NCBI GenBank assembly: GCA_947493005.1
Contig: CANLOY010000002.1
Location: 372,001 to 436,000, forward strand
Direction: 5' to 3'
Source of the DNA: an uncultured Roseivirga sp.
Lineage (GTDB): Bacteria > Bacteroidota > Bacteroidia > Cytophagales > Cyclobacteriaceae
DNA length: 64,000 nt
Position numbers and translations under genes: made by a program. The notes below the pieces were generated by a model that was not told where the DNA came from, searched no databases, and worked only from the letters and a program-made list of their open reading frames with translations. The stretch's first letter is position 1, and each line of letters begins with the position of its first letter. Positions 2,930-45,979 of this stretch are shown here, piece by piece.

Positions 2930-3577
2930 TTACTTATTTCTCAAGCTATTATAGTATTCAACCAGTCGAACGATATCTTCTAATAGATCTGTTTCTAACC
3001 TATTCTTTTTGATAAACTTCTTTAATTCTTCCTGGTACTGCCCAAATGCATTGGCTATACTTTTTCGGCCACCCCTCAGAAGTACTACTTCATTTTTTTC
3101 TCTCAACAAATAGAACTCATATTTAACCGACTCTATTTGAGGTCTGCCCCATCGGAATTTCATTCTTGCTGGCTGGTCTCTTCTAACGCCACTGGAAATA
3201 TGTAAAAACTCTCGGCCCAGCAAAGCTATGCCTCTACCTGAATAGTGGATAGCTTCGAATAGTTTAGGTCGTTTATAGCCAGTTTTATTAACGAATGGAA
3301 TAGAGATAAACTCTCTTTGCTTTTTAATATCTCTTTGGAAAATACTGAAACGTGCGAATTGATTGGCGGCAAGTATTTGCTTTTGCTCATTAAGTTTAAG
3401 GTGAATAAGGTCGGATTCCAGGTCGTATTTAATTATACCTGACAACTCTTTGCCATCATTGAGAAATACAGTCCCCTTATGCCAACCTTCACTAGGAAAT
3501 CCATATTTTACTTCTTGAGTAAAACTTTCAGCAACTAAAACACACAGAAGAGAAAGAGATATGAACCACTTTACCAT
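2930..3577 (-). CDS. secreted protein, tandem paralogue C of an unnamed family
   Basis: The 215-residue product has a signal peptide ending near FTQ at residue 20. Family motifs are FPSEGWHKG, LNDGKELSGIIKYDLESD, FSIFQRDIKKQ, KTGYKRPKLFE, LLGREFLH and VEYYNSL. It is closest to paralogue A, sharing the GYKRPK block and the D-L-E-S/A-D turn. It lies 29 bases beyond the end of ribBA on the same strand, so it may be read through from there. Function unknown. Confidence 0.8.
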   Translation of the reverse strand: MVKWFISLSLLCVLVAESFTQEVKYGFPSEGWHKGTVFLNDGKELSGIIKYDLESDLIHLKLNEQKQILAANQFARFSIFQRDIKKQREFISIPFVNKTGYKRPKLFEAIHYSGRGIALLGREFLHISSGVRRDQPARMKFRWGRPQIESVKYEFYLLREKNEVVLLRGGRKSIANAFGQYQEELKKFIKKNRLETDLLEDIVRLVEYYNSLRNK

Positions 3578-37182: not shown

Positions 37183-40100
37183 CTAGGAGAGTTCCAGTTC
37201 TTGATTTGGCAGCAAGTAGGAGTTTACTGTTTTTACCAATAGGTTATAGTTAACTGGCTTGGTTAAGTAATCATTCATTCCTGCAGCAAAACACTTCTCT
37301 TTTTCTCCTGTCATAACGGCTGCTGTTAATGCGATAATCGGAGTTTTTGACTTAGCACCATCCAACTCCCTGATCTTCCTGGTAGCTTCATAGCCATCCA
37401 TTACTGGCATCTGCAAATCCATCAATATCACATCAATATCTTCATTCAATAGAGTTTCAACTGCTATTACCCCATTTTCAGCACAGATCACCTCCATACC
37501 TTTATTCTTGAGCATCTTACTAGCTACCTTCTGGTTAGTAGGGTTGTCTTCCACCAGAAGTACTTTCCCTAAAACATTGGCTTTAGGTTTAATATTCTCA
37601 GGATAGGAACTTATACTTTCCTCTTCCATTTCAAACACTTTAACAGGGACATAGAATTTGAAAATCGATCCTTTATTCTCCTCACTCTCAACCCATATTT
37701 CACCCCTCATTTTCGCAACCAGCTCTTTGCTTATACTCAAGCCTAAGCCGGTTCCTCCATACTCTCTGGTATTTCCAGTATCAACCTGACTAAAACTTTC
37801 GAATATTCCTTCTTGATGAGCTTCTTGTATACCAATACCAGTATCAGTGACTGTAAACCAAATTTCGACCTCATCTGTATTCTCCTTGATCAAGGCCTCA
37901 GCAAAAATTGTAACTCCGCCAGAGTGAGTAAATTTGACTGCGTTTGATACTAAGTTCACAAGTACTTGTCTGATATGTTTTGCATCTCCTTCAACATAAG
38001 CCGGCACATCAGGCAGTATCCAGTGCTTTAATGTTATATTCTTTTCTTCTGCAGCGTAGGAAAATGAAGACACTATCTCCTTTAATAAGTCTTTAATACC
38101 AAATGGTTCAATCACTACCTCCAAACTTCCTGATTCAATTTTAGCAATATCCAAAATATCATCAACGATAGATTTTAAGGAGTCAGCAGAGCTTGATATA
38201 GTCTTTAATATATCCTCTTGTTCCCTGTCCAGATCACTTTCCAGTGATAACTGAGTAAGTCCCATAATACCATTCAAAGGGGTCCTTATCTCATGACTCA
38301 TATTGGCCAGAAACTTGTTTTTTATTTGATTGGCATCTTCAGCATCTTCAAGTGCAGACCTTAGTTTAGCTTCTACTCGCTTTCTTTCCCCAATCTCCTT
38401 ATGCAGTTCTGACGAACGTTCATCAACAAGTAACTCTAACTGCTGACGTTTACGCTTTAATCGCTGCTCTCTTAACCAGAAAAAGAGCACAATCAGGCCT
38501 ACTATTAATAGAACCATTAGTACTCTAAACCAAAGCGACTGGTAAGGATGTGGTTGTACTCTAATGCTCAAAACTCGTTCTTCAGACCAGCCACCTGAAA
38601 GTCTTCCCTTTGATTGGAAAACAAAATCATAGTTCTTACCCGTAGGGATCTCTTTATATGATGCTTGCCCAATTTTGGTTTCAATCCAATCATCGTCATA
38701 ATTGGTTAGCTTATATCTATATAGCACATCATCTGGTCTAACATAATCCAAAGCACTAAATTCAATAAGAAAGTTATTCTGCTCACAACCTAAAATAAGG
38801 TCGTCAATTAAGGCAATGCTCCTGTCCAAAGGGGAATTTTCTTCTCCGGCCTTCACTTTCTCATCATTAACAGTCAGCCTGATAAAATTAGGGTTCTGTT
38901 TGATCTCAAAATCTTTAACCTTCATTGGATTAAGCTCGGTAAGCCCGCTTAGTCCACCCATAAAGATTCTATTATCATTACTTTTAGAAGCGGCTCTTGC
39001 TGAAAATTGATTACCCTGGAGTCCGTCACTAATATCATAATTGTTCACAGAGACTTTCTCCAGACTATCAACACCAACTCGAAGTTTCGTCACACCATCG
39101 TTAGTTGAAAGCCACATAACTCCTTGATCATCCTCTACAATTGATCTTATATCCTGAGCTTTTAGCCCACTTTTTTTATCATATACCTTTACAACTTTTA
39201 AATCATTATCTAGCAACAACGCTCCATCTTCTTGGGTCCCAACCCATATCCTATCTTTTGAATCTTTATATACTTCGTTAATAGGGATATCGTCCGGCAA
39301 CTTTTTAAACCCATTGAAAGGTACTTTTACCAAAATCCCTTTCTCAAACTTGAAAAGTCCTTTTCCTGTCGCAACCAAAACCATTTCATTAAACTTCTTA
39401 ATTGAACGAATGGAAGGGACTAAATCCATTTTCACTCCGTCTATCATAAAATCCACATGTCTCAGCATCCTACTGACACTAGCATACAGTTTAACCCCAT
39501 GTTCTTCCGTTCCAAGCCAGACATTGTCATTCTCATCAACCATAACAGTATTAACAACATGCCCCTTTAACTGGGTTGGCATGATATACTCAAATCCCTT
39601 CCTACTATTTCTCCATTTCACCAAACCATTATTAGTACCTAGCCAAAGGTAGTCTGCACTGCATTGCCCTATTGATAATATACCATTGACATCATTACTT
39701 AACTTTTTAGGAAATGGATAATGAACGAATTTATTTGTAGAGGGATCTAGTCTAGACATACCTCTTCTTGAACCCAACCAGACACCTCCATCTCTTGCTG
39801 AAAAAATAGAAAACAGCGCATAATCCATTAAATCATTATCCGTTCCATCGGCCCTCGTTTGTCCGTAGTAATCGAATAAGTTATCCGCTTCATGATAAAA
39901 ATTAACTCCAGAATTAGGAGTAGAAATCCAAACAACCCCAGATCTATCTTGATAAACATCTCTCAGTACTGGGTCGGAGAGTGAATATGCATTATCAAAA
40001 TCATGTTGATAATGAAATATTTTACCTGTACTTGGATTTATAACACTTACACCATTATTTGTTGTAACCCAAACATCTCTTTGATTAACAACTGCAATAT

Positions 40101-40875
40101 CATTGACAAAGTCAGATATTATCCCTTGTGAACTGTTCTTGGCATACTCTTTTAGTCCGCCATTACGGTATTCAAAAAGTCCACTTCCATACGTTCCAAT
40201 CCATAGTTTCTTATCAGTTGACAGTAGGCTGGAAATTGGTTTACCTTGAAGCATATCCACTCTATTGAGCCTATCGTCACTAACGACAAAGAGTCCTTCA
40301 GAACTTCCAACCCACAAACGTGATTCAAACATTTGAAGTACTGACAACCTTGTTTCTGTATTAGATAGGTCAGATACTTTCAAATCGCTTAACTTTTTAT
40401 GAGTTGTTCCATCTATCTCAACTAAATGTTGATTCAATATCATCCACAAATCACCTTCTTCATCTTCTTTAATGTCTACTACAGAAATACCACTTGCACT
40501 TTCAAAATCTCCCAGAACATTCACCTTTCTGAATTTGTCTCTGTTTCTGTCGAAGAGATTCAAACCATCCTTGGTTCCCACCCATAGTCTCTGCTGGCTA
40601 TCTTCAAAAAGAACTGTGATATAATTATTGCTAAGTGTAGTACTGTCAGACCGGCTATGCTTATAAATTTCAAAGTCATTATAACCATTCACTCGATTGA
40701 GTCCTTCTTCAGTTCCAAACCAAATGAACCCAAGGTAGTCTTGAATAATAGAAGTTGTCTTGTCACTTGACAACCCATAATCGGCAAACAGGTGATAAAA
40801 AAAAGGGCTTTTTGACTGGGATTTAAGGCATAAGCTTAGGCAGCTCAAAAAATAAATGAGTAGTAGTTTTCTCAT
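37183..40875 (-). CDS. hybrid sensor histidine kinase with propeller sensor and C-terminal receiver
   Basis: The start at 40875 (MRKLLLIYFLSCLSLCL) begins a signal peptide; four codons upstream is another ATG. The 1230-residue protein has propeller repeats (GTKDGLNLFDRN, GTEEHGVKL, GTQEDGALLLD), a Y_Y_Y domain (YRYKLTNYDDDW), one TM helix (about 780-800), HisKA with phospho-acceptor His in NMSHEIRTPLNGIMG, HATPase motifs NLVSNAVKF, DTGIGI and GTGLGLSIS, and a receiver with DLQMPVMDG. Unlike classic HTCS proteins it has no AraC DNA-binding domain, so output must pass to another protein. The sensed glycan is unknown. Confidence 0.92.
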   Translation of the reverse strand: MRKLLLIYFLSCLSLCLKSQSKSPFFYHLFADYGLSSDKTTSIIQDYLGFIWFGTEEGLNRVNGYNDFEIYKHSRSDSTTLSNNYITVLFEDSQQRLWVGTKDGLNLFDRNRDKFRKVNVLGDFESASGISVVDIKEDEEGDLWMILNQHLVEIDGTTHKKLSDLKVSDLSNTETRLSVLQMFESRLWVGSSEGLFVVSDDRLNRVDMLQGKPISSLLSTDKKLWIGTYGSGLFEYRNGGLKEYAKNSSQGIISDFVNDIAVVNQRDVWVTTNNGVSVINPSTGKIFHYQHDFDNAYSLSDPVLRDVYQDRSGVVWISTPNSGVNFYHEADNLFDYYGQTRADGTDNDLMDYALFSIFSARDGGVWLGSRRGMSRLDPSTNKFVHYPFPKKLSNDVNGILSIGQCSADYLWLGTNNGLVKWRNSRKGFEYIMPTQLKGHVVNTVMVDENDNVWLGTEEHGVKLYASVSRMLRHVDFMIDGVKMDLVPSIRSIKKFNEMVLVATGKGLFKFEKGILVKVPFNGFKKLPDDIPINEVYKDSKDRIWVGTQEDGALLLDNDLKVVKVYDKKSGLKAQDIRSIVEDDQGVMWLSTNDGVTKLRVGVDSLEKVSVNNYDISDGLQGNQFSARAASKSNDNRIFMGGLSGLTELNPMKVKDFEIKQNPNFIRLTVNDEKVKAGEENSPLDRSIALIDDLILGCEQNNFLIEFSALDYVRPDDVLYRYKLTNYDDDWIETKIGQASYKEIPTGKNYDFVFQSKGRLSGGWSEERVLSIRVQPHPYQSLWFRVLMVLLIVGLIVLFFWLREQRLKRKRQQLELLVDERSSELHKEIGERKRVEAKLRSALEDAEDANQIKNKFLANMSHEIRTPLNGIMGLTQLSLESDLDREQEDILKTISSSADSLKSIVDDILDIAKIESGSLEVVIEPFGIKDLLKEIVSSFSYAAEEKNITLKHWILPDVPAYVEGDAKHIRQVLVNLVSNAVKFTHSGGVTIFAEALIKENTDEVEIWFTVTDTGIGIQEAHQEGIFESFSQVDTGNTREYGGTGLGLSISKELVAKMRGEIWVESEENKGSIFKFYVPVKVFEMEEESISSYPENIKPKANVLGKVLLVEDNPTNQKVASKMLKNKGMEVICAENGVIAVETLLNEDIDVILMDLQMPVMDGYEATRKIRELDGAKSKTPIIALTAAVMTGEKEKCFAAGMNDYLTKPVNYNLLVKTVNSYLLPNQELELS

Positions 40876-40887
40876 ACGTAGTGTCAA

Positions 40888-41344
40888 GGTAATCCTCTAA
40901 TTTACATTTATTTTCAGAGAACTAAAAAAATACAACTGTTTGGCTTTCAAAAGAATACAGTTAACACTAGGACAGCTATCAATTATTGAAGCTTTGCAAT
41001 ATCCAATTAATGTTATATTGGTTTAACATCAAACCGGTTATTCATAAAGCCTTTCAAGCAATACTTAGGTTATCTGATAATGCTATGCTAAACTCATATG
41101 TCACGCACTATCCTCCTTTTGATAAGCCGTCTCCTTAAATACCCCCTACCTTCTGTTATGTAAAACATCAGGTTTGTTTTTAAGAAAACCGTCTAAACGA
41201 TTGAGCAACTTATTAAATCACGACTGTATCAAGCCCTACCTATTCAGAGGAATAGTAAAAAAAACAAATACACTACAAACAACTAATAATCAGTAAGTTA
41301 AATACTTTTGCATTAAACAAAACCAAGCTATCAGGAAATTTATT
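40888..41344. other. AT-rich intergenic stretch without a recognisable gene
   Basis: About 450 bases between the kinase gene and the structured-RNA region. No long frame, tRNA or strong hairpin was seen. A TACTTTTG box at 41303-41310 fits TAnnTTTG but lacks a TTG at the right distance. Confidence 0.5.
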
Positions 41345-41376
41345 TTGCAAATTCAAAAATGATTTTAATACATTTG
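41345..41376 (+). promoter_or_regulatory. predicted promoter upstream of the structured-RNA array
   Basis: TTG at 41345-41347 and TACATTTG (TAnnTTTG) at 41369-41376, 21 bases apart. It is the best Bacteroidota-style promoter upstream of the RNA array. Confidence 0.5.
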
Positions 41377-41382
41377 CAGCAA

Positions 41383-41536
41383 GAAAAAGCGAAATGATAA
41401 AGAGCTATTTACATACTCAATTAGGGACACCACTTCGAATTAGTGATGTTGAAAATTGTTGTGTAATGAGGTTCGGATAAGATATATTTCTTATAATGAG
41501 ATATTGAAACCCGGGCCTTACAGCCTGGGTTTTTTT
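41383..41536 (+). ncRNA. possible short leader or small RNA ending in a terminator
   Basis: The promoter at 41345-41376 and the intrinsic terminator at 41508-41536 bracket about 150 bases with no plausible ORF but a TTCGAATTA-capped hairpin (around 41427-41451). Either a free small RNA or an attenuated leader of the following array. Confidence 0.4.
41508..41536 (+). terminator. strong intrinsic terminator
   Basis: AACCCGGGC and GCCTGGGTT pair (one G-U) around CTTACA and continue into a T-run. Confidence 0.88.
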
Positions 41537-41671
41537 ATGACTAAAAATTTACGAATGCAAGTACGCAAAGAAGAATTACATATTGATCGTTCGTGGAGCA
41601 CAAGTCCAAGTCAAAATGATTTTGGAAAAGGTGAAATCCATCGAATGCATAAGGTCGAGCACGATATTTGA
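41537..41671 (+). CDS. possible 44-codon small ORF between two terminators
   Basis: ATG at 41537 directly follows the T-run of the first terminator and the frame stops at TGA 41669-41671, just before a hairpin. The product would be basic and polar (MTKNLRMQVRKEEL...HKVEHDI) with no TM or signal. No family recognised. A longer frame beginning upstream would read through the terminator and is less likely. Coding status is uncertain. Confidence 0.3.
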   Translation: MTKNLRMQVRKEELHIDRSWSTSPSQNDFGKGEIHRMHKVEHDI

Positions 41672-41692
41672 CAAAACTGTACTTCAGTTTTG
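41672..41692 (+). other. perfect 8-bp hairpin
   Basis: CAAAACTG and CAGTTTTG pair around TACTT immediately after the small ORF and immediately before the next terminator. Confidence 0.7.
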
Positions 41693-41727
41693 AAAAGCCC
41701 GATCTTATTCCAAGGTCGGGCTTTTTT
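41693..41727 (+). terminator. intrinsic terminator before the tRNA-like elements
   Basis: AAAAGCCCGA (41693-41702) pairs with TCGGGCTTTT (41716-41725), followed by T residues. The first tRNA-like element begins four bases later. Confidence 0.82.
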
Positions 41728-41730
41728 ATT

Positions 41731-41802
41731 GTCAGGATGGCCCTATGGTAAGGCACCGGTCCGCAAAACTGGAGGTCATCGGTTCGAATCCGATTCCTGA
41801 CT
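41731..41802 (+). tRNA. tRNA-Cys-like element (GCA), atypical C33
   Basis: It folds as a full cloverleaf: acceptor GTCAGGA/TCCTGAC, D stem GCC/GGC with GG in the loop, anticodon arm CCGGT-CCGCAAA-ACTGG, variable AGGTC, T arm ATCGG-TTCGAAT-CCGAT and U73 as in tRNA-Cys. The residue before the GCA anticodon is C instead of the nearly universal U33. It is either a functional but odd tRNA-Cys or a tRNA mimic. CCA is not encoded. Confidence 0.65.
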
Positions 41803-41807
41803 TTAAT

Positions 41808-41880
41808 CACAAGGTGGCCCAAAGGGAAGGCGTCAGTACCTAAGGCACTGAAGATGCAGGTTCGAAACCTGCCCTTGTAT
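41808..41880 (+). tRNA. tRNA-like element with abnormal anticodon arm (TAA)
   Basis: The acceptor pairs over six bases (ACAAGG/CCTTGT), the D stem is GCC/GGC and the T arm GCAGG-TTCGAAA-CCTGC is perfect. The anticodon arm is irregular: either TCAGT/ACTGA with a 9-base loop, or CAGTA/CACTG with an A-C mismatch and loop CCTAAGG (TAA with C33). A real tRNA-Leu(UAA) would have a long variable arm, which is absent. It lies six bases after the Cys-like element. A pseudo-tRNA or mimic is more likely than a translating tRNA. Confidence 0.5.
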
Positions 41881-41932
41881 TGAGCAAAAGACCAATATCC
41901 AAACAAACTGAACGAGTAACCGACTTATTCAG

Positions 41933-41990
41933 AAAGCCTCTTCTGAGAGGTAAAGAAGAGGTCATTCATTAAATGGCCTCTTCTCAGAAA
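41933..41990 (+). other. pair of CCTCTTCT stem-loops around a small ORF start
   Basis: CCTCT/AGAGG around 41938-41950 and a 13-bp stem (AGAAGAGGTCATT with AATGGCCTCTTCT, one G-U) just after it share the GCCTCTTCT sequence, so they can form alternative pairings. The second stem contains the ATG at 41973. Confidence 0.5.
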
Positions 41991-42068
41991 ATAGTAAAGC
42001 TCAAAAGAGCGGAAAAGAAGCTAAAGGAGAGGCAGAACGAGTGTCTCCTGAAACTGGAGAAGGGTTAA
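41973..42068 (+). CDS. possible 31-codon basic/helical small ORF
   Basis: ATG at 41973 to TAA at 42066-42068. The product would be a Lys/Glu-rich helix (KIVKLKRAEKKLKERQ). Its start lies in the stem of a 13-bp hairpin, so translation could be structure-controlled. No family recognised; it could be chance in purine-rich RNA. Confidence 0.3.
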   Translation: MASSQKIVKLKRAEKKLKERQNECLLKLEKG

Positions 42069-42185
42069 AGCCCCTAAATAGTGCTTCGTTCGGACTATGA
42101 TGTTTGAAAAAGCTCCAGTGTACATAGCAGGTTATTCCAGAGTGAAATTCATTAATCATGAACTGATTCTGAGAATGACCTTAAT

Positions 42186-42268
42186 GGAAATGCGATAACG
42201 ATGGCGAGTTATATCGGTCTGTAAAACCGATGCTGTATGCTGAATAGGTTCGAATCCTATCATTTCCA
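42186..42268 (+). tRNA. tRNA-Tyr-like element (GTA)
   Basis: The acceptor GGAAATG/CATTTCC is perfect; the D arm ATAAC/GTTAT has GG in its loop; the anticodon arm TCGGT-CTGTAAA-ACCGA has normal U33 and GTA; a 13-base variable region fits class II tRNA-Tyr; the T arm ATAGG-TTCGAAT-CCTAT is perfect; discriminator A. Position 8 is C instead of U, and the D loop lacks the usual leading A. Possibly functional, possibly a mimic like its neighbours. Confidence 0.6.
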
Positions 42269-42269
42269 C

Positions 42270-42367
42270 GGGAATATTACTCAGGTATAAGACCTGATGA
42301 GGGCTTCGGTATAGCCCCATAGTGCCGGAAACGGTATGCTGCTTAATAGTTGAAGGTGTTCCCACCA
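42270..42367 (+). ncRNA. tRNA-like element with encoded CCA end and three internal hairpins
   Basis: A 7-bp acceptor-like helix (GGGAATA at 42270-42276, TGTTCCC at 42357-42363) ends in ACCA. Inside are three hairpins in series: TCAGGT-ATAAG-ACCTGA, GGGCT-TCGGTAT-AGCCC and TGCCG-GAAA-CGGTA. There is no TTCGAnT T-loop, so it is not a standard tRNA. Its 3' helix strand overlaps sequence that can also pair in the next element, so the two folds are mutually exclusive. Confidence 0.5.
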
Positions 42368-42454
42368 TAGGCTTAAGGCGAAGGTTCGAATCCTTCTCTC
42401 GACAAGAGTCGGGATAGCTCAGCTTGGTTAGAGTGTAAGCACCACTTATGTGGA

Positions 42455-42471
42455 ATGGACTGTTACTCCAT
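42455..42471 (+). other. free-standing anticodon-arm-like hairpin (GTT)
   Basis: ATGGA-CTGTTAC-TCCAT has a 7-base loop with U33 and a GTT (Asn) anticodon, but no T arm or acceptor follows. It sits inside the larger Y RNA-like domain. Confidence 0.5.
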
Positions 42472-42472
42472 C

Positions 42473-42490
42473 AGAAGTGCTGACTTCTTT
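42473..42490 (+). terminator. short hairpin, possible terminator or processing site
   Basis: AGAAGT and ACTTCT pair around GCTG and run into TTT then AAAAA. The T-run is short, so termination would be partial. Confidence 0.4.
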
Positions 42491-42519
42491 AAAAACAGCA
42501 ACACTTAGAAGAGGTGTTT

Positions 42520-42745
42520 GATAAGTCCCCTCTCTCCTTTTGGAAGAGAAGGAAAGTTTTGAAAAACCCGAATGATCAGGATACCGCCTGATGCAGTAGT
42601 TGACTTCTTAGCACATTGTAGGTATGAGAAGTGAGACTTTGTCTCATGGTACTCATCCTTCAGGCGCTGGAACTCAATCATTAATTCAGACTTAATGATT
42701 ATTCCGCTTTTGATAAATGATTTATCAACACTCTTCCTATTTGAA
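42520..42745 (+). other. further hairpins in the leader of the SPFH gene
   Basis: Several clear stems lie here: a TCTCTCC stem with one bulge, ATCAGG/CCTGAT, ACTTCT/AGAAGT, TGAGAC-TTT-GTCTCA, AATCATTAA/TTAATGATT and TTGATAAA-TGA-TTTATCAA. They continue the structured region up to about 70 bases before the SPFH start. No tRNA motif is present. Confidence 0.55.
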
Positions 42746-42812
42746 AGACATTATATGGCCAATAATGATAAATGAATATTGACCGGGGCATGGCCTCACA
42801 AATTTTAGAATA

Positions 42813-43913
42813 ATGAAAAGGGTACTAATAAACCAAGGTAATGTAGGGTTGGTCTTCAGAAATGGAGACTACAAGAGAGTGCTTACCGCTGGAAAGCATT
42901 GGGTATCAATCTTAGACAGTGTTGTCAAATTCGATATGGTTAAACCATTTATGGCACCTAAGACCATAGACTTGTACTTGGGTGACGAAAAATTGGCCGG
43001 GTTACTGAATGTGATCAGAGTTGCTGATACGGAAATAGTCTTGAAATACAAGAGAGGAAACTTTCGAGAAGTACTTACCTCTGGCACATACGCTTATTGG
43101 AAAGGCTTGATTGACTACAGCTTTATCAAAGTTAATCTGGCTGATTATGAAATTGATGAATGTATCGACAAAGAGGTACTTATTGATAGAGCCCTGTACT
43201 CTTACGTCAGGAAGTTTACTATTGAATCCTTCGAAGAAGGTTTGCTTTTGGTAAATGGAAAATATGTAAGGCAGCTCGACAAAGGCACTCATTACTTCTG
43301 GCAGAATACTACAGCGTTGACTGTACTAAAGGCTGACATGAGACAAGTGCAAATGGAGGTCAATGGACAGGAAATTCTGACCAAAGACAAAGCGGCACTT
43401 CGAATCAATTTCTACGGTCAATACAAAGTCAAAGACATTGTCAAAGCTTTGATTGAGAATAAAGATTATGAGAAGCAACTCTATGTGTTGATGCAAATCG
43501 CACTCAGAGAGTTTGTCGGAAGGTTTACACTTGACGAATTGCTTGAAGAAAAATCTTCTCTCGCAGAATATGTGAAAGAAGTCTTGAAATTGAAATCCAA
43601 AGATCTGGGGATTGAGATCAGGGATTGTGGTGTCAAGGACATCATTTTGCCCGGTGAAGTAAAAGACATCATGAACCAGGTGTTAGTAGCTCAAAAGCAA
43701 GCACAAGCAAATGTGGTTACCAGAAGAGAGGAAACTGCCTCTACACGGAACTTATTGAATACTGCAAAATTGATGGAGGACAACCAAATGTTGTTTAAAC
43801 TCAAGGAGATGGAATATGTTGAACGGATTGCCGAAAAAGTAAGCAACATTTCTCTGTCTGGAGGAAACAAGGTTCTTGACCAGTTAAAAGAAGTCTTTAC
43901 TGGTTTTAAATAA
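42813..43913 (+). CDS. SPFH/slipin-family protein without a membrane anchor
   Basis: The 366-residue protein has a band-7/SPFH domain (about 130-300; LKADMRQVQMEVNGQEILTK, ALRINFYGQYKV, DLGIEIRDCGVKDIILPGEV) and an Ala/Gln/Glu-rich coiled coil (about 285-335). Ordinary slipins begin with a membrane helix; here none is visible. Instead three related beta modules precede the SPFH fold (QGNVGLVFRNGDYKRVLTAGKHW, EIVLKYKRGNFREVLTSGTYAYW, EEGLLLVNGKYVRQLDKGTHYFW, given by their key residues). SPFH proteins form ring-like oligomers. Its place between tRNA-like RNAs and rtcB suggests a scaffold in RNA repair. Confidence 0.88.
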   Translation: MKRVLINQGNVGLVFRNGDYKRVLTAGKHWVSILDSVVKFDMVKPFMAPKTIDLYLGDEKLAGLLNVIRVADTEIVLKYKRGNFREVLTSGTYAYWKGLIDYSFIKVNLADYEIDECIDKEVLIDRALYSYVRKFTIESFEEGLLLVNGKYVRQLDKGTHYFWQNTTALTVLKADMRQVQMEVNGQEILTKDKAALRINFYGQYKVKDIVKALIENKDYEKQLYVLMQIALREFVGRFTLDELLEEKSSLAEYVKEVLKLKSKDLGIEIRDCGVKDIILPGEVKDIMNQVLVAQKQAQANVVTRREETASTRNLLNTAKLMEDNQMLFKLKEMEYVERIAEKVSNISLSGGNKVLDQLKEVFTGFK

Positions 43914-43918
43914 ATAAC

Positions 43919-43948
43919 ATCTCAGTCTCAATGGTTTGAGGCTGAGAT
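43919..43948 (+). terminator. stem-loop between SPFH and TPR genes
   Basis: ATCTCAGTCTCAA pairs with TTGAGGCTGAGAT-type sequence over about 13 bp with a G-U. No long T-run, so it may be a processing or stability hairpin within the operon. Confidence 0.5.
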
Positions 43949-43984
43949 ACTAACGAATAATTATGGAAATACAACTAATAACCT

Positions 43985-44002
43985 GAGGGCAGAACTGCCC
44001 TC
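43985..44002 (+). other. GC-rich hairpin in the TPR gene leader
   Basis: GAGGGCA-GAAC-TGCCCTC forms a tight 7-8 bp stem 14 bases before the ATG at 44017. Confidence 0.6.
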
Positions 44003-44016
44003 TGAATTCAAACAAA

Positions 44017-44541
44017 ATGGACATTTACGAAACGTACATAGAAAACTTAATTCAGCTGGCAGAAGAAGCAATAGATGACTGTAATTATCAGCAAGCGAAG
44101 GATTTGTTAGAAAGTGGTCTGGCTGAAGAGCCTGGCTATCCAAAATTACACGCCTCGATGGGAAGGTTATTTCACTATGACCTTGAGAACCCCGCGATGG
44201 CGGAAAAGCATTACCACCTGGCAATTCACTTTAAACCCGATTACCAAGGCGTTTACGAAGATTTAGCTTGGCTCTACATCAAGCATAAAAAGTACATTGG
44301 TCTAGAGCACTGGATGAAAAAAGCCAGGAAAGTAAAAGGCCTGAATAAGTGTATGATTTATGAGAACCTGGGAAAGGTTGCTGAAGAGAAAGAGGATTTC
44401 AAAAAAGCACTTAAACTATTTAAAAAAGGGCTCTTAAAATCACTGAACGATCACGATGCAAGTCGGCTGAAAAAGCACATTAAAAGAAACAAATACAAGA
44501 AACTCGAGCTCGTCAAAAAGGGCCGCTCGAACAAACATTAA
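44017..44541 (+). CDS. TPR protein with basic tail
   Basis: The 174-residue cytoplasmic protein is built of about three to four tetratricopeptide repeats (AKDLLESGLAEEPGYPKLHA, MAEKHYHLAIHFKPDYQGVY, KALKLFKKGLLKSL). It ends in a strongly basic stretch (KKHIKRNKYKKLELVKKGRS) that could bind RNA. TPR proteins mediate protein-protein contact; a bridge between the SPFH protein and RtcB is inferred from order. RtcB starts four bases after its stop. Confidence 0.85.
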   Translation: MDIYETYIENLIQLAEEAIDDCNYQQAKDLLESGLAEEPGYPKLHASMGRLFHYDLENPAMAEKHYHLAIHFKPDYQGVYEDLAWLYIKHKKYIGLEHWMKKARKVKGLNKCMIYENLGKVAEEKEDFKKALKLFKKGLLKSLNDHDASRLKKHIKRNKYKKLELVKKGRSNKH

Positions 44542-44545
44542 GACA

Positions 44546-45979
44546 ATGGCATCTAGAAAACTAACAGGAAAAGACCTGAAAAAACTGGGATTCCCCGAAG
44601 GTAGAGCCATAGGAGAAGCTATGCGAGTAATGGAGATTCACTATAAAGGAAAATCCATTCTCCATAAGAAAGCTATGCTCAGAAAAGTGTTGGATACGCC
44701 AGCACTCTACAAAAAGCATGAAACATTAGGAGCAATTGCCACTGCATTGCTGATTGCTGAAATTTCTAATAAACCCTTAACTATGCGCCAAAAGCGTATT
44801 CCATATAGTATTTACGGACAGGAAGGCATAGAACCAGGAGCTATTAATCAAATGGAAATCGCCATGAAACTGCCTGTAGCAAAAGCAGGAGCACTTATGC
44901 CCGATGCTCATCAGGGTTATGGTTTACCAATCGGTGGAGTTCTGGCCACGGAAAATGCAGTAATCCCTTATGGAGTTGGAGTGGACATTGGATGTAGAAT
45001 GTGTATGACAGTGTATGGCGTCCCTCCGGCATTTGCTCATCAAAGTACTGAAGCTTTATCTCAAATGTTAATGGATAATACGCGCTTTGGTCAAGGCACT
45101 TTCAAAAGACCGAAAGACCATGCAGTATTAGAAAGCTCATTATTTAATGAGATTAACATTTTGAAATCATTAAAAGACAGAGCATGGAGTCAGATAGGTT
45201 CCTCAGGTGGTGGTAATCACTTTGTAGAATTCGGAATTACAGAAATCTTGAATCCTGATAACGAAATGAATCTGCCTATTGGTAAATACTTATCGGTACT
45301 CTCCCACTCAGGATCGAGAGGGCTTGGTGCTAATATCGCAAGACATTATACCAAGTTGGCCATGGATATGACCAAGTTACCGAGTGAAGCCAAACACCTT
45401 GCCTGGCTAGACCTGGATAAAGCAGAAGGTCAGGAATACTGGTTGGCAATGAACCTGGCCGGTGACTATGCTTCGGCATGTCATCACCAGATTCATGAAC
45501 GATTGGCGAAAGCACTTGGGGAGCAACCATTAGCAATGATTGAAAACCATCACAATTTTGCTTGGAAAGAGCAAGACACCAACGGTAACGAGATCATTGT
45601 TCATCGGAAAGGTGCTACTCCAGCGGGAGAAGGTGTCATGGGAATAATCCCTGGATCAATGACTTCGCCTGGTTTCATAGTCAGAGGCAAAGGAGTTGGT
45701 GAATCAATTAACTCGGCATCTCACGGTGCCGGTCGATTGATGTCCAGAACCAGAGCAAAACAAACGCTTTCTATAAAAGATGTTAAAAAACACATCAAGA
45801 AATCTGGAGTAACGCTTATAGGTTCTGGAGTAGATGAAGCGCCACAAGTTTATAAAAACATCCATGAAGTGATGAAAAGGCAACATGACCTTGTGGAAAT
45901 CATGGGAACATTTCATCCTAAAGTAGTAAGAATGTGTGGAACCAAGGAAGCAAGAGGTGGTTTCACAGAAGTAGATTAA
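44546..45979 (+). CDS. rtcB: RtcB RNA-splicing ligase
   Basis: RtcB joins RNA 2',3'-cyclic phosphate (or 3'-phosphate) ends to 5'-OH ends using GTP and Mn2+. The 477-residue protein shows the metal-site motifs DAHQGYGLPIGGV, GVGVDIGCRM (Cys ligand), GGGNHFVEFG (His) and SHSGSRGLG (His), and SHGAGRxxSR with guanylylated His393. No archease gene is adjacent. Bacterial RtcB repairs RNAs cut by ribotoxins, such as tRNA anticodon loops or rRNA. The tRNA-like array directly upstream on the same strand makes tRNA or tRNA mimics the natural candidate substrates. Confidence 0.95.
   Translation: MASRKLTGKDLKKLGFPEGRAIGEAMRVMEIHYKGKSILHKKAMLRKVLDTPALYKKHETLGAIATALLIAEISNKPLTMRQKRIPYSIYGQEGIEPGAINQMEIAMKLPVAKAGALMPDAHQGYGLPIGGVLATENAVIPYGVGVDIGCRMCMTVYGVPPAFAHQSTEALSQMLMDNTRFGQGTFKRPKDHAVLESSLFNEINILKSLKDRAWSQIGSSGGGNHFVEFGITEILNPDNEMNLPIGKYLSVLSHSGSRGLGANIARHYTKLAMDMTKLPSEAKHLAWLDLDKAEGQEYWLAMNLAGDYASACHHQIHERLAKALGEQPLAMIENHHNFAWKEQDTNGNEIIVHRKGATPAGEGVMGIIPGSMTSPGFIVRGKGVGESINSASHGAGRLMSRTRAKQTLSIKDVKKHIKKSGVTLIGSGVDEAPQVYKNIHEVMKRQHDLVEIMGTFHPKVVRMCGTKEARGGFTEVD

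What the first reader, a model, noticed from the sequence alone, without database searches (positions are those of the whole stretch)
42362..42453. Circularly permuted tRNA-like domain with tetraloop-capped acceptor stem (Y RNA-like)
The T arm and 3' acceptor strand (42371-42403) precede the 5' acceptor strand and D arm (42408-42434), joined by a 4-base AAGA loop. Acceptor (7 bp), D, T and the GCTTA/TAAGC anticodon-type stem all pair, with canonical GG in the D loop and TTCGAAT in the T loop. The outer helix continues with CCAC(C)ATAG against TTATGTGG. This is the architecture described for the tRNA-mimic module of bacterial YrlA-type Y RNAs. An alternative is a genuine permuted tRNA precursor needing ligation, which an adjacent RtcB could supply.
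Basis: partly seen in the sequence, partly recalled or inferred. Interest (0 to 1): 0.9.

Follow-up and report, generated by a model that had tools for sequence, protein, structure and literature searches.

The report
Capped tRNA mimic before slipin-RtcB genes
Upstream of an RNA-repair gene cluster in many Bacteroidota bacteria lies a structured RNA carrying one or two back-to-front tRNA look-alikes, the same module that true Y RNAs carry but without a detectable Ro60-binding stem, and in this genome without a detectable Ro60 gene.

Summary
The core observation is real. Window 42371-42440 folds as T arm, capped acceptor stem, D arm and anticodon-type stem. The module recurs within about 1 kb upstream of slipin in 76 of 78 sources with enough upstream DNA, window included. 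Covariation supports all four helices: score 0.80 against 0.24 shuffled and 0.11-0.19 slid.

The same covariance model finds the modules beside Ro60 (TROVE) genes in 8 of 8 TROVE regions fetched, of 13 TROVE-positive genomes. So "YrlA-type tRNA mimic" is right for the module. It is not shown to be a Y RNA: no TROVE match in the own genome, and no Ro-type basal stem detected around slipin-linked copies. In 7 of 80 slipin loci a TROVE gene lies upstream on the same strand, with Y RNA motifs nearby.

A permuted tRNA precursor is unlikely: capped acceptors, the seventh pair often lost, ordinary tRNAs of 19 isotypes elsewhere. The module sits in a larger conserved stretch with a second module or its remnant, a U33 anticodon-type arm and a pseudoknot. 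Best reading: a Ro-independent tRNA-mimic leader or noncoding RNA of a slipin-RtcB unit. Transcription and function are inferred.

The parts
41731..41880 (+). tRNA-Cys(gca) 41731-41802 and tRNA-Leu(taa) 41808-41880, start of the tRNA array; second copies of tRNAs found elsewhere in the genome
   Evidence: further Cys(gca), Leu(taa) and Tyr(gta) tRNAs elsewhere
42186..42269 (+). tRNA-Tyr(gta), last ordinary tRNA before the element
   Evidence: 41.2 bits
42282..42342 (+). Conserved upstream domain ('module A'): hairpins CAGGT..ACCTG, GGGC-TTCGGTATA-GCCC and GCCG-GAAA-CGGT
   Evidence: coordinates; motif in 52 of 78 sources with the middle stem pair complementary in 51 of 52 (the pattern itself demands the outer G/C letters)
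42371..42440 (+). P1: permuted, capped tRNA mimic (anticodon-type stem 42371-42375/42436-42440; T arm 42380-42396; acceptor 42397-42403/42408-42414, cap 42404-42407; D arm 42417-42434)
   Evidence: R1 63.9 bits, best match in the genome
42442..42453 (+).
42455..42471 (+). Anticodon-type arm ATGGA-CTGTTAC-TCCAT (7-nt loop, U33, GUU in anticodon position), read as remnant of P2
   Evidence: the U33 position is T in 48 of 48 P2 modules of relatives
42473..42500 (+). Possible H-type pseudoknot AGAAG[TGCTG]A CTTCT TTAAAAA[CAGCA]
   Evidence: such a pattern within 110 nt after the last module in 46 of 68 sources, 21 of 340 mononucleotide shuffles; not at the same distance in all
42501..42812 (+). 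Rest of the conserved leader up to slipin, with recurring motifs GGATACCG (42574-42593) and TTCCG..GAT (42702-42726); no long open frame
   Evidence: motifs by eye (alignment of 817 columns, window 42015-42799, to L001 at 70%; longest stop-free stretch 48 aa on + strand of 41900-42812)
42813..43913 (+). slipin / SPFH (Band_7) protein, no membrane-like hydrophobic stretch
   Evidence: Pfam Band_7 7.6e-32; maximum 19-residue hydropathy 1.0
44017..44541 (+). TPR protein
44546..45979 (+). RtcB RNA ligase
   Evidence: Pfam RtcB 2.6e-79

Best explanation
The element is a YrlA-type, permuted, loop-capped tRNA mimic (P1) inside a larger structured stretch that lies directly upstream of, and on the same strand as, a slipin-(TPR)-RtcB RNA-repair gene cluster of Bacteroidota. 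Many relatives carry two such modules: P1, closed by an open anticodon-type stem, and P2, closed by a full anticodon-type arm, often with a pseudoknot after them. It shares its tRNA-mimic module with the RNAs that sit beside Ro60, but no Ro-binding basal stem was detected, and the genome has no TROVE match. Shown by sequence comparison: the fold, its conservation, its place and its kinship in architecture with Ro-linked YrlA. Inferred: it is transcribed with the slipin-RtcB genes, and it works as YrlA's tRNA-like domain does, docking or occupying a tRNA-recognising protein (a nuclease such as PNPase, a tRNA-cleaving enzyme or RtcB itself) for the slipin-RtcB machinery.
For: Fold and covariation: A1, 37 sequences, 95.2% of cells paired, 232 cells with changes on both sides (68.2 in shuffles), score 0.796 vs 0.241 shuffled and 0.112-0.189 slid. 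Anticodon-type stem: 5 of 5 pairs in 44 of 68 sources, null mean 10.7, null maximum 19 in 2000. P2: 46 to 48 of 48 modules paired at each of the ten T and anticodon-stem positions (pairing partly selected for), U33 in 48 of 48 (not selected for). Recurrence: 76 of 78 sources at E<=0.001; of the 41 not used to build the model 36 score >=45 bits (read by eye). Specificity: of the 23 listed hits of at least 46 bits and at most 76 nt in 198 Bacteroidota genomes, 7 lie by slipin, 12 by TROVE and 4 are tRNA-tRNA junctions. All 7 of these genomes with a slipin of >=49% identity have a module upstream of it. Kinship to YrlA. Shared setting: RtcB in the same stretch as TROVE in 7 of 8 fetched regions, 53-60% identical in 5; TROVE upstream of slipin on one strand in 7 of 80 loci. 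Same-unit hint: a palindromic site with a TTTG box upstream in 40 of 81 sources. Mechanism by analogy: YrlA's basal stem tethers Rsr and its tRNA-like domain binds PNPase (passage in PMC8394870); a competitive-inhibitor role was proposed for the domain in Salmonella (passage in PMC7790460).
Against: No expression data. The scan that chose the sequences of A1 demanded pairing in T, acceptor and D stems and maximised the anticodon stem, which inflates the paired percentage (less the variety of compensatory changes); one of the five measures, the number of pairs with a change on both sides (18), is reached by 23 of 500 shuffles. The energy z-score of the window is weak. The window's Rfam YrlA score is far below the cut-off. 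The basal-stem test rests on duplex energy of 25-nt flanks; a stricter count of pairs contiguous with the module does not separate the groups (0 extra pairs in 37 of 54 slipin-linked and 9 of 10 Ro-linked modules). RtcB is not always beside slipin: of 7 slipin genomes it is next or next but one in 3, 9-12 kb upstream in 2, distant in 1 and not found in 1. The palindromic site is not found in the window even with 3 mismatches, and 7 sites with TTTG also occur downstream.
Confidence: 0.6

Rival explanations
1. Cis-acting leader: the RNA senses damaged or uncharged tRNA, or a tRNA-binding protein, and controls expression of slipin-RtcB on its own mRNA.
For: It lies directly before slipin with no long open frame between, and a common palindromic site lies upstream in 40 of 81 sources. 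tRNA fragments are reported to activate the Salmonella rtc operon (passage of PMC8394870).
Against: The only terminator-like site listed on the + strand of 41300-42830 lies in the array tRNA-Leu, none between the module and slipin. True YrlA, the closest relative, is described as a trans-acting RNA.
Confidence: 0.3
2. Decoy or bait for anticodon nucleases: the P2 anticodon arm (U33, variable triplet) is cut instead of real tRNAs and is resealed by RtcB.
For: P2 arms look like canonical anticodon loops (U33 in 48 of 48, positions 37-38 AA in 37 of 48) with 17 different triplets among 49 arms. The arm is kept in the window although the rest of P2 is not seen.
Against: P1 has no anticodon loop. 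Fragments of YrlA were not detected in Salmonella when tRNAs were cut (passage in PMC7790460). No nuclease partner is known.
Confidence: 0.2
3. A genuine Y RNA that works with Ro60.
For: Same module as Ro-linked YrlA; a TROVE gene lies upstream in 7 of 80 relatives.
Against: No TROVE match in the own genome (assembly 98.7% complete) or in the 6 same-family genomes searched. No basal stem by flank duplex: -6.82 vs null -6.67 in 54 sources, whereas 10 Ro-linked modules give -13.75 vs -10.59. Where TROVE is in the cluster, separate Y RNA motifs exist beside it.
Confidence: 0.05
4. A circularly permuted tRNA precursor, joined by RtcB into a working tRNA.
For: Order of halves and nearby RtcB; permuted tRNA genes are known elsewhere (PMC3978253, search listing only).
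Against: Spacers of 1-24 nt between acceptor strands, some closing as GAAA or GTAA; acceptor pair 7 unpaired in 19 of 37; L002 has a shortened acceptor capped by GAAA (by eye); P1 has no anticodon loop; ordinary tRNAs of 19 isotypes are present outside the array (none for Ile seen).
Confidence: 0.04
5. Decayed tRNA array: chance pairing between halves of neighbouring tRNAs.
For: The model also scores ordinary tRNA-tRNA junctions (up to about 60 bits), so modules may have arisen by domain swapping of adjacent tRNAs.
Against: Compensatory changes hold the permuted pairs across the sampled loci; anticodon arms are absent between halves; 0 of 1560 shuffles.
Confidence: 0.03

Closest known systems
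YrlA / bacterial Y RNA (Rfam RF02553) of Ro60 (Rsr) RNPs
   Same: Order T arm, capped acceptor, D arm; Rfam model hits in homologues; RtcB near both
   Different: No Ro-type basal stem detected, modules often in tandem, embedded in a larger leader-like stretch, slipin and no TROVE match in this genome
GOLLD RNA (RF02032)
   Same: Large RNA near tRNA arrays; matched in 4 of the 21 slipin loci scanned against Rfam, each with an R1 match inside it
   Different: A separate stretch upstream of the element; the window has no GOLLD match in 40000-45000
rsr-yrlBA-rtcBA RNA-repair operon (Salmonella)
   Same: tRNA-mimic RNA beside RtcB (passages of PMC7790460)
   Different: Ro60-based; the words 'slipin' and 'band-7' do not occur in that paper's main text
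Anabaena trn operon and TrcR regulon
   Same: tRNA operon, rtcB and a slipin gene under one repressor (passages of PMC10272220)
   Different: trn operon on a megaplasmid, rtcB on the chromosome; 0 occurrences of 'trna-like' and 'permut'
SPFH protein PaFlo8 in the P. aeruginosa rtc locus
   Same: SPFH gene embedded among RNA-repair genes (passage of PMC13086221)
   Different: 0 occurrences of 'tRNA' in that paper's main text

Membership tests
Y RNA / YrlA | tRNA-mimic module: T arm, capped acceptor, D arm in this order | tested here: met
   R1 finds Ro-linked modules at 49.6-68.4 bits
Y RNA / YrlA | Rfam YrlA gathering score (69 bits) | tested here: not met
   21.3 bits; best homologue 50.0. 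Note: no YrlA match passes in the 8 TROVE regions either, so the cut-off says little in Bacteroidota
Y RNA / YrlA | Basal stem that binds Ro60/Rsr | tested here: not met
   flank duplex at null level in 54 slipin-linked modules, above it in 10 Ro-linked ones; the contiguous-extension count did not separate them. One of the 54 (L041) is in fact a Y RNA module
Y RNA / YrlA | Ro60 (TROVE) gene in the genome | tested here: not met
   0 matches; present in 13 of 198 Bacteroidota genomes
Y RNA / YrlA | Small RNA of 90-150 nt binding Rsr and PNPase | not testable with these tools
   definition from passage of PMC8394870; needs RNA and protein work
Circularly permuted tRNA gene | Complete tRNA after joining, with anticodon loop and free acceptor end | tested here: not met
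   no anticodon loop in P1, short caps, pair 7 lost in 19 of 37
tRNA | Rfam tRNA match at 42371-42440 over 29 bits | tested here: not met
   only 17.5 bits, over 42330-42404
tmRNA, one-piece or permuted | tmRNA match over cut-off | tested here: not met
   none listed in window 40000-45000 or 42330-42460; the genome has its own tmRNA elsewhere, 129 bits
GOLLD | RF02032 match | tested here: not met
   none in window 40000-45000 up to E=5

The most novel reading that the evidence does not exclude
A widespread large RNA of Bacteroidota, not found described in the library searched, uses tandem YrlA-type tRNA mimics without Ro60: a ring- or cage-forming SPFH protein takes the place of the Ro60 ring, and the anticodon-bearing second module is a bait whose cutting reports or absorbs attack on tRNAs, with RtcB resealing it. 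Ro60, Y RNAs, this RNA, slipin and RtcB were once, and in some genomes still are, one system.
Probability: 0.25. Interest if true: 0.88.

Novelty: new variant of a known kind. Interest (0 to 1): 0.72.

Why it matters
Y RNAs are known as partners of Ro60. Here the tRNA-mimic half of a Y RNA is found, held by strong covariation across many Bacteroidota, in a setting with no detectable Ro-binding half and tied to a slipin and often an RNA ligase instead. That makes two open questions testable: what the tRNA-like domain of Y RNAs is for without Ro60, and what SPFH proteins do in RNA-repair operons. Clusters in which TROVE, Y RNA motifs, this element, slipin and RtcB stand on one strand are natural test objects.

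Tried and rejected
Permuted tRNA precursor: rejected; caveat: no tRNA-Ile and no tRNA-Ala(tgc) were among the 37 tRNAs of the assembly, genes that usually lie in rRNA operons (recalled), which a draft assembly often loses. tmRNA: rejected. Minimum free energy as proof: rejected, z -0.99, -1.49 and -1.24 for three window stretches. Model R1 as a sole criterion: rejected, because ordinary tRNA-tRNA junctions score up to about 60 bits; G151, G012, G167, the second hit of G084 and G186 were fetched and are such junctions. Slipin relatives in viral contigs: none by the tool's six peptide patterns. PADLOC: no family for the four proteins. Sigma-70 promoter scan: 1 site against 3.8 in shuffles.

Rows dropped: 12 of 49 P1 candidates were left out of A1 (L013, L023, L028, L029, L030, L040, L041, L043, L047, L068, L073, L076; near-duplicates or less typical). 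L013, L028 and L029 were left out. L011, L053 and L071 have under 600 nt upstream and are not among the 78. Eight of 13 TROVE-positive genomes were fetched. The looser scan also took in some tRNA junctions. L041's best R1 hit, counted among the 73 sources at >=45 bits, and one of the 54, is the module of its Y RNA; its slipin-side module scores 28.4 bits. Counts were read by eye from its table. In one search the 5' acceptor letters printed were wrong through a script slip; positions were right and repeats it correctly.

Papers: PMC8394870, PMC7790460, PMC12286853, PMC6582537, PMC7824862, PMC10272220, PMC13086221: passages only. PMC3978253: search listing only. Chen et al. 2014 and Burroughs & Aravind 2016 are not held; anything about them is recalled. 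That this slipin-linked RNA was not found in print rests on the searches in the held library only, of which I saw listings.

Full report
What was checked. The sequence at 42371-42440 was read, folded and compared with Rfam. The permuted order is real: GCTTA, variable loop, T arm GAAGG-TTCGAAT-CCTTC, acceptor strand TCTCGAC, cap AAGA, acceptor strand GTCGGGA, TA, D arm GCTC-AGCTTGGTTA-GAGT, G, TAAGC. Evidence had to come from relatives.

Relatives. The slipin gene downstream brought 80 named loci, nearly all labelled Bacteroidota, the nearest Roseivirga sp. E12 at 79% identity. ARAGORN finds at least one tRNA upstream of slipin on its strand in 47 of 80 and at least three in 35. A strict scan for the permuted module found 94 hits in 64 of 78 sources (window included) within 800 nt upstream of slipin, none in the downstream control, none antisense and none in 1560 shuffles. 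A looser scan found 121 candidates in 70 of 81 sources: 65 with an open anticodon-type stem (P1), 53 with a closed anticodon-type arm (P2) and 3 unclear, some of them tRNA junctions. Many loci carry P1 followed at once by P2.

Covariation. Thirty-seven of 49 P1 candidates were aligned. All five anticodon-stem pairs, all seven acceptor pairs, three of five T pairs and three of four D pairs have changes on both sides somewhere; the paired share is 95.2%, cells changed on both sides 232 against 68.2 in shuffles, and the covariation score 0.796 against 0.241 in shuffles and 0.112-0.189 with slid partners. The plain number of pairs with a change on both sides (18) is less telling: 23 of 500 shuffles reach it. 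The scan that chose the sequences required pairing, which inflates the paired share. The anticodon-type stem was also tested against partners from other loci: 44 of 68 have five of five pairs, the null mean is 10.7 and the null maximum 19. In 48 P2 modules of 40 loci each anticodon-stem and T position is paired in 46 to 48, and the U33 position is T in 48 of 48.

Caps. Acceptor pair 7 is unpaired in 19 of 37 P1 modules and in 20 of 48 P2 modules. With pair 7 counted into the loop, loops such as GAAA (4) and GTAA (2) appear. In L002 the acceptor is shortened to a few pairs closed by GAAA (by eye). This suits a permanently capped helix, not a tRNA end that will carry CCA.

Kinship with Y RNAs. 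Rfam YrlA matches the modules below its cut-off: 21.3 bits in the window, 50.0 and 40.7 for the two modules of L065, 49.1 in L079. TROVE genes occur in 13 of 198 Bacteroidota genomes, not in the window's genome. Model R1, built from slipin-linked modules, has a hit near TROVE in 11 of these 13 in the printed, cut list; in the 8 regions fetched the best scores are 49.6-68.4 bits. None of these 8 has a YrlA match over Rfam's cut-off, so that cut-off says little here. An RtcB lies in the same fetched stretch (9-13 kb) in 7 of 8, 53-60% identical to the window's in five and 28% in two; none was found in L125.

Difference from Y RNAs. Ro-linked modules are framed by motifs that can form a basal stem (GTGCCGTAG.. 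and ..TTGCC, by eye): mean flank duplex -13.75 kcal/mol against a null of -10.59 (sd 0.82, 10 modules in 8 regions). The 54 slipin-linked P1 modules, one per source, show none: -6.82 against -6.67 (sd 0.24). A count of pairs contiguous with the module did not separate the groups. Seven of 80 slipin loci (L004, L006, L013, L041, L061, L067, L068) carry a TROVE gene upstream on the same strand. Y RNA motif pairs lie between TROVE and slipin in L004, L006, L013 and L041, and upstream of TROVE in L061, L067 and L068. L004, L006, L013 and L068 also have a P1 candidate before slipin; L041 has, by eye, a P2-like module and a pseudoknot there. So the slipin-linked element and Y RNAs are separate parts of one neighbourhood.

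Specificity. R1 over the 81 sources gives a hit at E<=0.001 within about 1 kb upstream of slipin in 76 of the 78 with enough DNA (not L062, L080), and at >=45 bits in 73 (in L041 it is the Y RNA's module); among the 41 not used for the model, 36 reach 45 bits (counted by eye). In the own genome the element is the best match (63.9 bits); the next two, 37.8 and 36.1, are tRNA-tRNA junctions, and the 20 weaker ones were not looked at one by one. In 198 genomes, 7 have a slipin at >=49% identity. Six have a listed R1 hit just upstream of it, and in the seventh, G002, a weaker module (37.5 bits, no tRNA there) was found on checking. Of the 23 listed hits of at least 46 bits and at most 76 nt, 7 lie by slipin, 12 by TROVE and 4 are tRNA junctions. 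The list was cut, so this is not a full census.

The larger RNA. Upstream of P1 a conserved domain recurs (52 of 78 sources by a motif; its middle stem pair is T-A 33, G-C 9, A-T 5, C-G 4, C-T 1). After the last module an H-type pseudoknot pattern with an A-rich loop is found in 46 of 68 sources, against 21 of 340 mononucleotide shuffles; its distance varies, so not all need be the same element. In the window and L001 a small hairpin stands where L002 has the T, acceptor and D arms of P2, while the anticodon-type arm stays. The stretch aligns with L001 over 817 columns at 70% and has no long open frame.

Transcription. In 40 of 81 sources a palindrome TACGCA-N-TGCGTA stands upstream of slipin: 47 sites in 300,296 upstream bases, 45 of them with TTTG 8-26 nt behind, against 7 in 307,876 downstream bases, also all with TTTG. 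It stands about 60 nt before TROVE in L004, L006 and L013. TTTG as a Bacteroidota promoter element is recalled. The window has no such site within 3 mismatches.

Interpretation. The safest statement is architectural: a YrlA-type tRNA mimic without a detectable Ro-binding stem, often in tandem, in a larger structured stretch before slipin and commonly RtcB. RtcB is not constant: in the fetched 4-kb flanks a match of any identity is found in 34 of 80 loci, and in 7 searched genomes it is next or next but one to slipin in 3, 9-12 kb upstream in 2, distant in 1 and not found in 1. YrlA's tRNA-like domain binds PNPase and is modified like tRNA (passage of PMC8394870), and a competitive-inhibitor role was proposed for it (passage of PMC7790460). 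By analogy the present RNA most likely presents a tRNA shape to a tRNA-recognising protein, in trans or as a cis leader; the bait reading rests on the U33 arm of P2. None of this is shown.

Origin. Because the model also fits junctions of neighbouring tRNAs, and the element often ends tRNA arrays, the modules may have come from adjacent tRNAs that swapped acceptor partners and lost the anticodon arm between them. This is inference.

Noticed in passing
L012 2812-2877, L019 779-848, L033 2799-2867, L038 2581-2647: Four GOLLD matches (119.5-129.9 bits, cut-off 150) in slipin neighbourhoods of Flavobacteriaceae (4 of 21 loci scanned, some chosen for this) each hold an R1 match (33.8-40.6 bits) 71-75 nt after the start of the match; in L012, whose alignment was printed, it falls in the unstructured linker, where tRNAs are said to be sometimes present (passage of PMC12286853).
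   Followed up: partly
L004 -2903, L025 -1274, L010 -670 relative to slipin, and 37 further loci: A palindrome (A)CTACGCA-N6-TGCGTAG(T) with a TTTG box behind it, 47 sites upstream of slipin in 40 of 81 sources; probably the site of an unknown regulator. Absent from the window.
   Followed up: partly
L004, L006, L013, L041, L061, L067, L068: Clusters with a TROVE (Ro60) gene upstream of slipin on the same strand and Y RNA motifs nearby; L004 also has a short Y RNA-like stretch at about 2964-3025 without the tRNA-like module.
   Followed up: partly
window 41808-41880 and 42186-42269: The array tRNAs Leu and Tyr score lowest of the genome's 37 (41.8 and 41.2 bits) and duplicate Leu(taa) and Tyr(gta) found elsewhere in the genome.
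   Followed up: partly
window 42813-43913: The slipin has no membrane-like hydrophobic stretch (maximum 19-residue hydropathy 1.0), so it may be a soluble SPFH protein.
   Followed up: no
window 42012-42137: A further conserved block between tRNA-Leu and tRNA-Tyr (84% identical to L002 over 126 nt) with no Rfam match listed there; possibly another structured RNA.
   Followed up: no
window, about 41510-41536 and 41696-41727: Two GC-rich hairpins followed by T runs upstream of the tRNA array, the second also seen in L001 and L002; perhaps terminators or attenuators. Noticed by eye; the scan did not list them.
   Followed up: no
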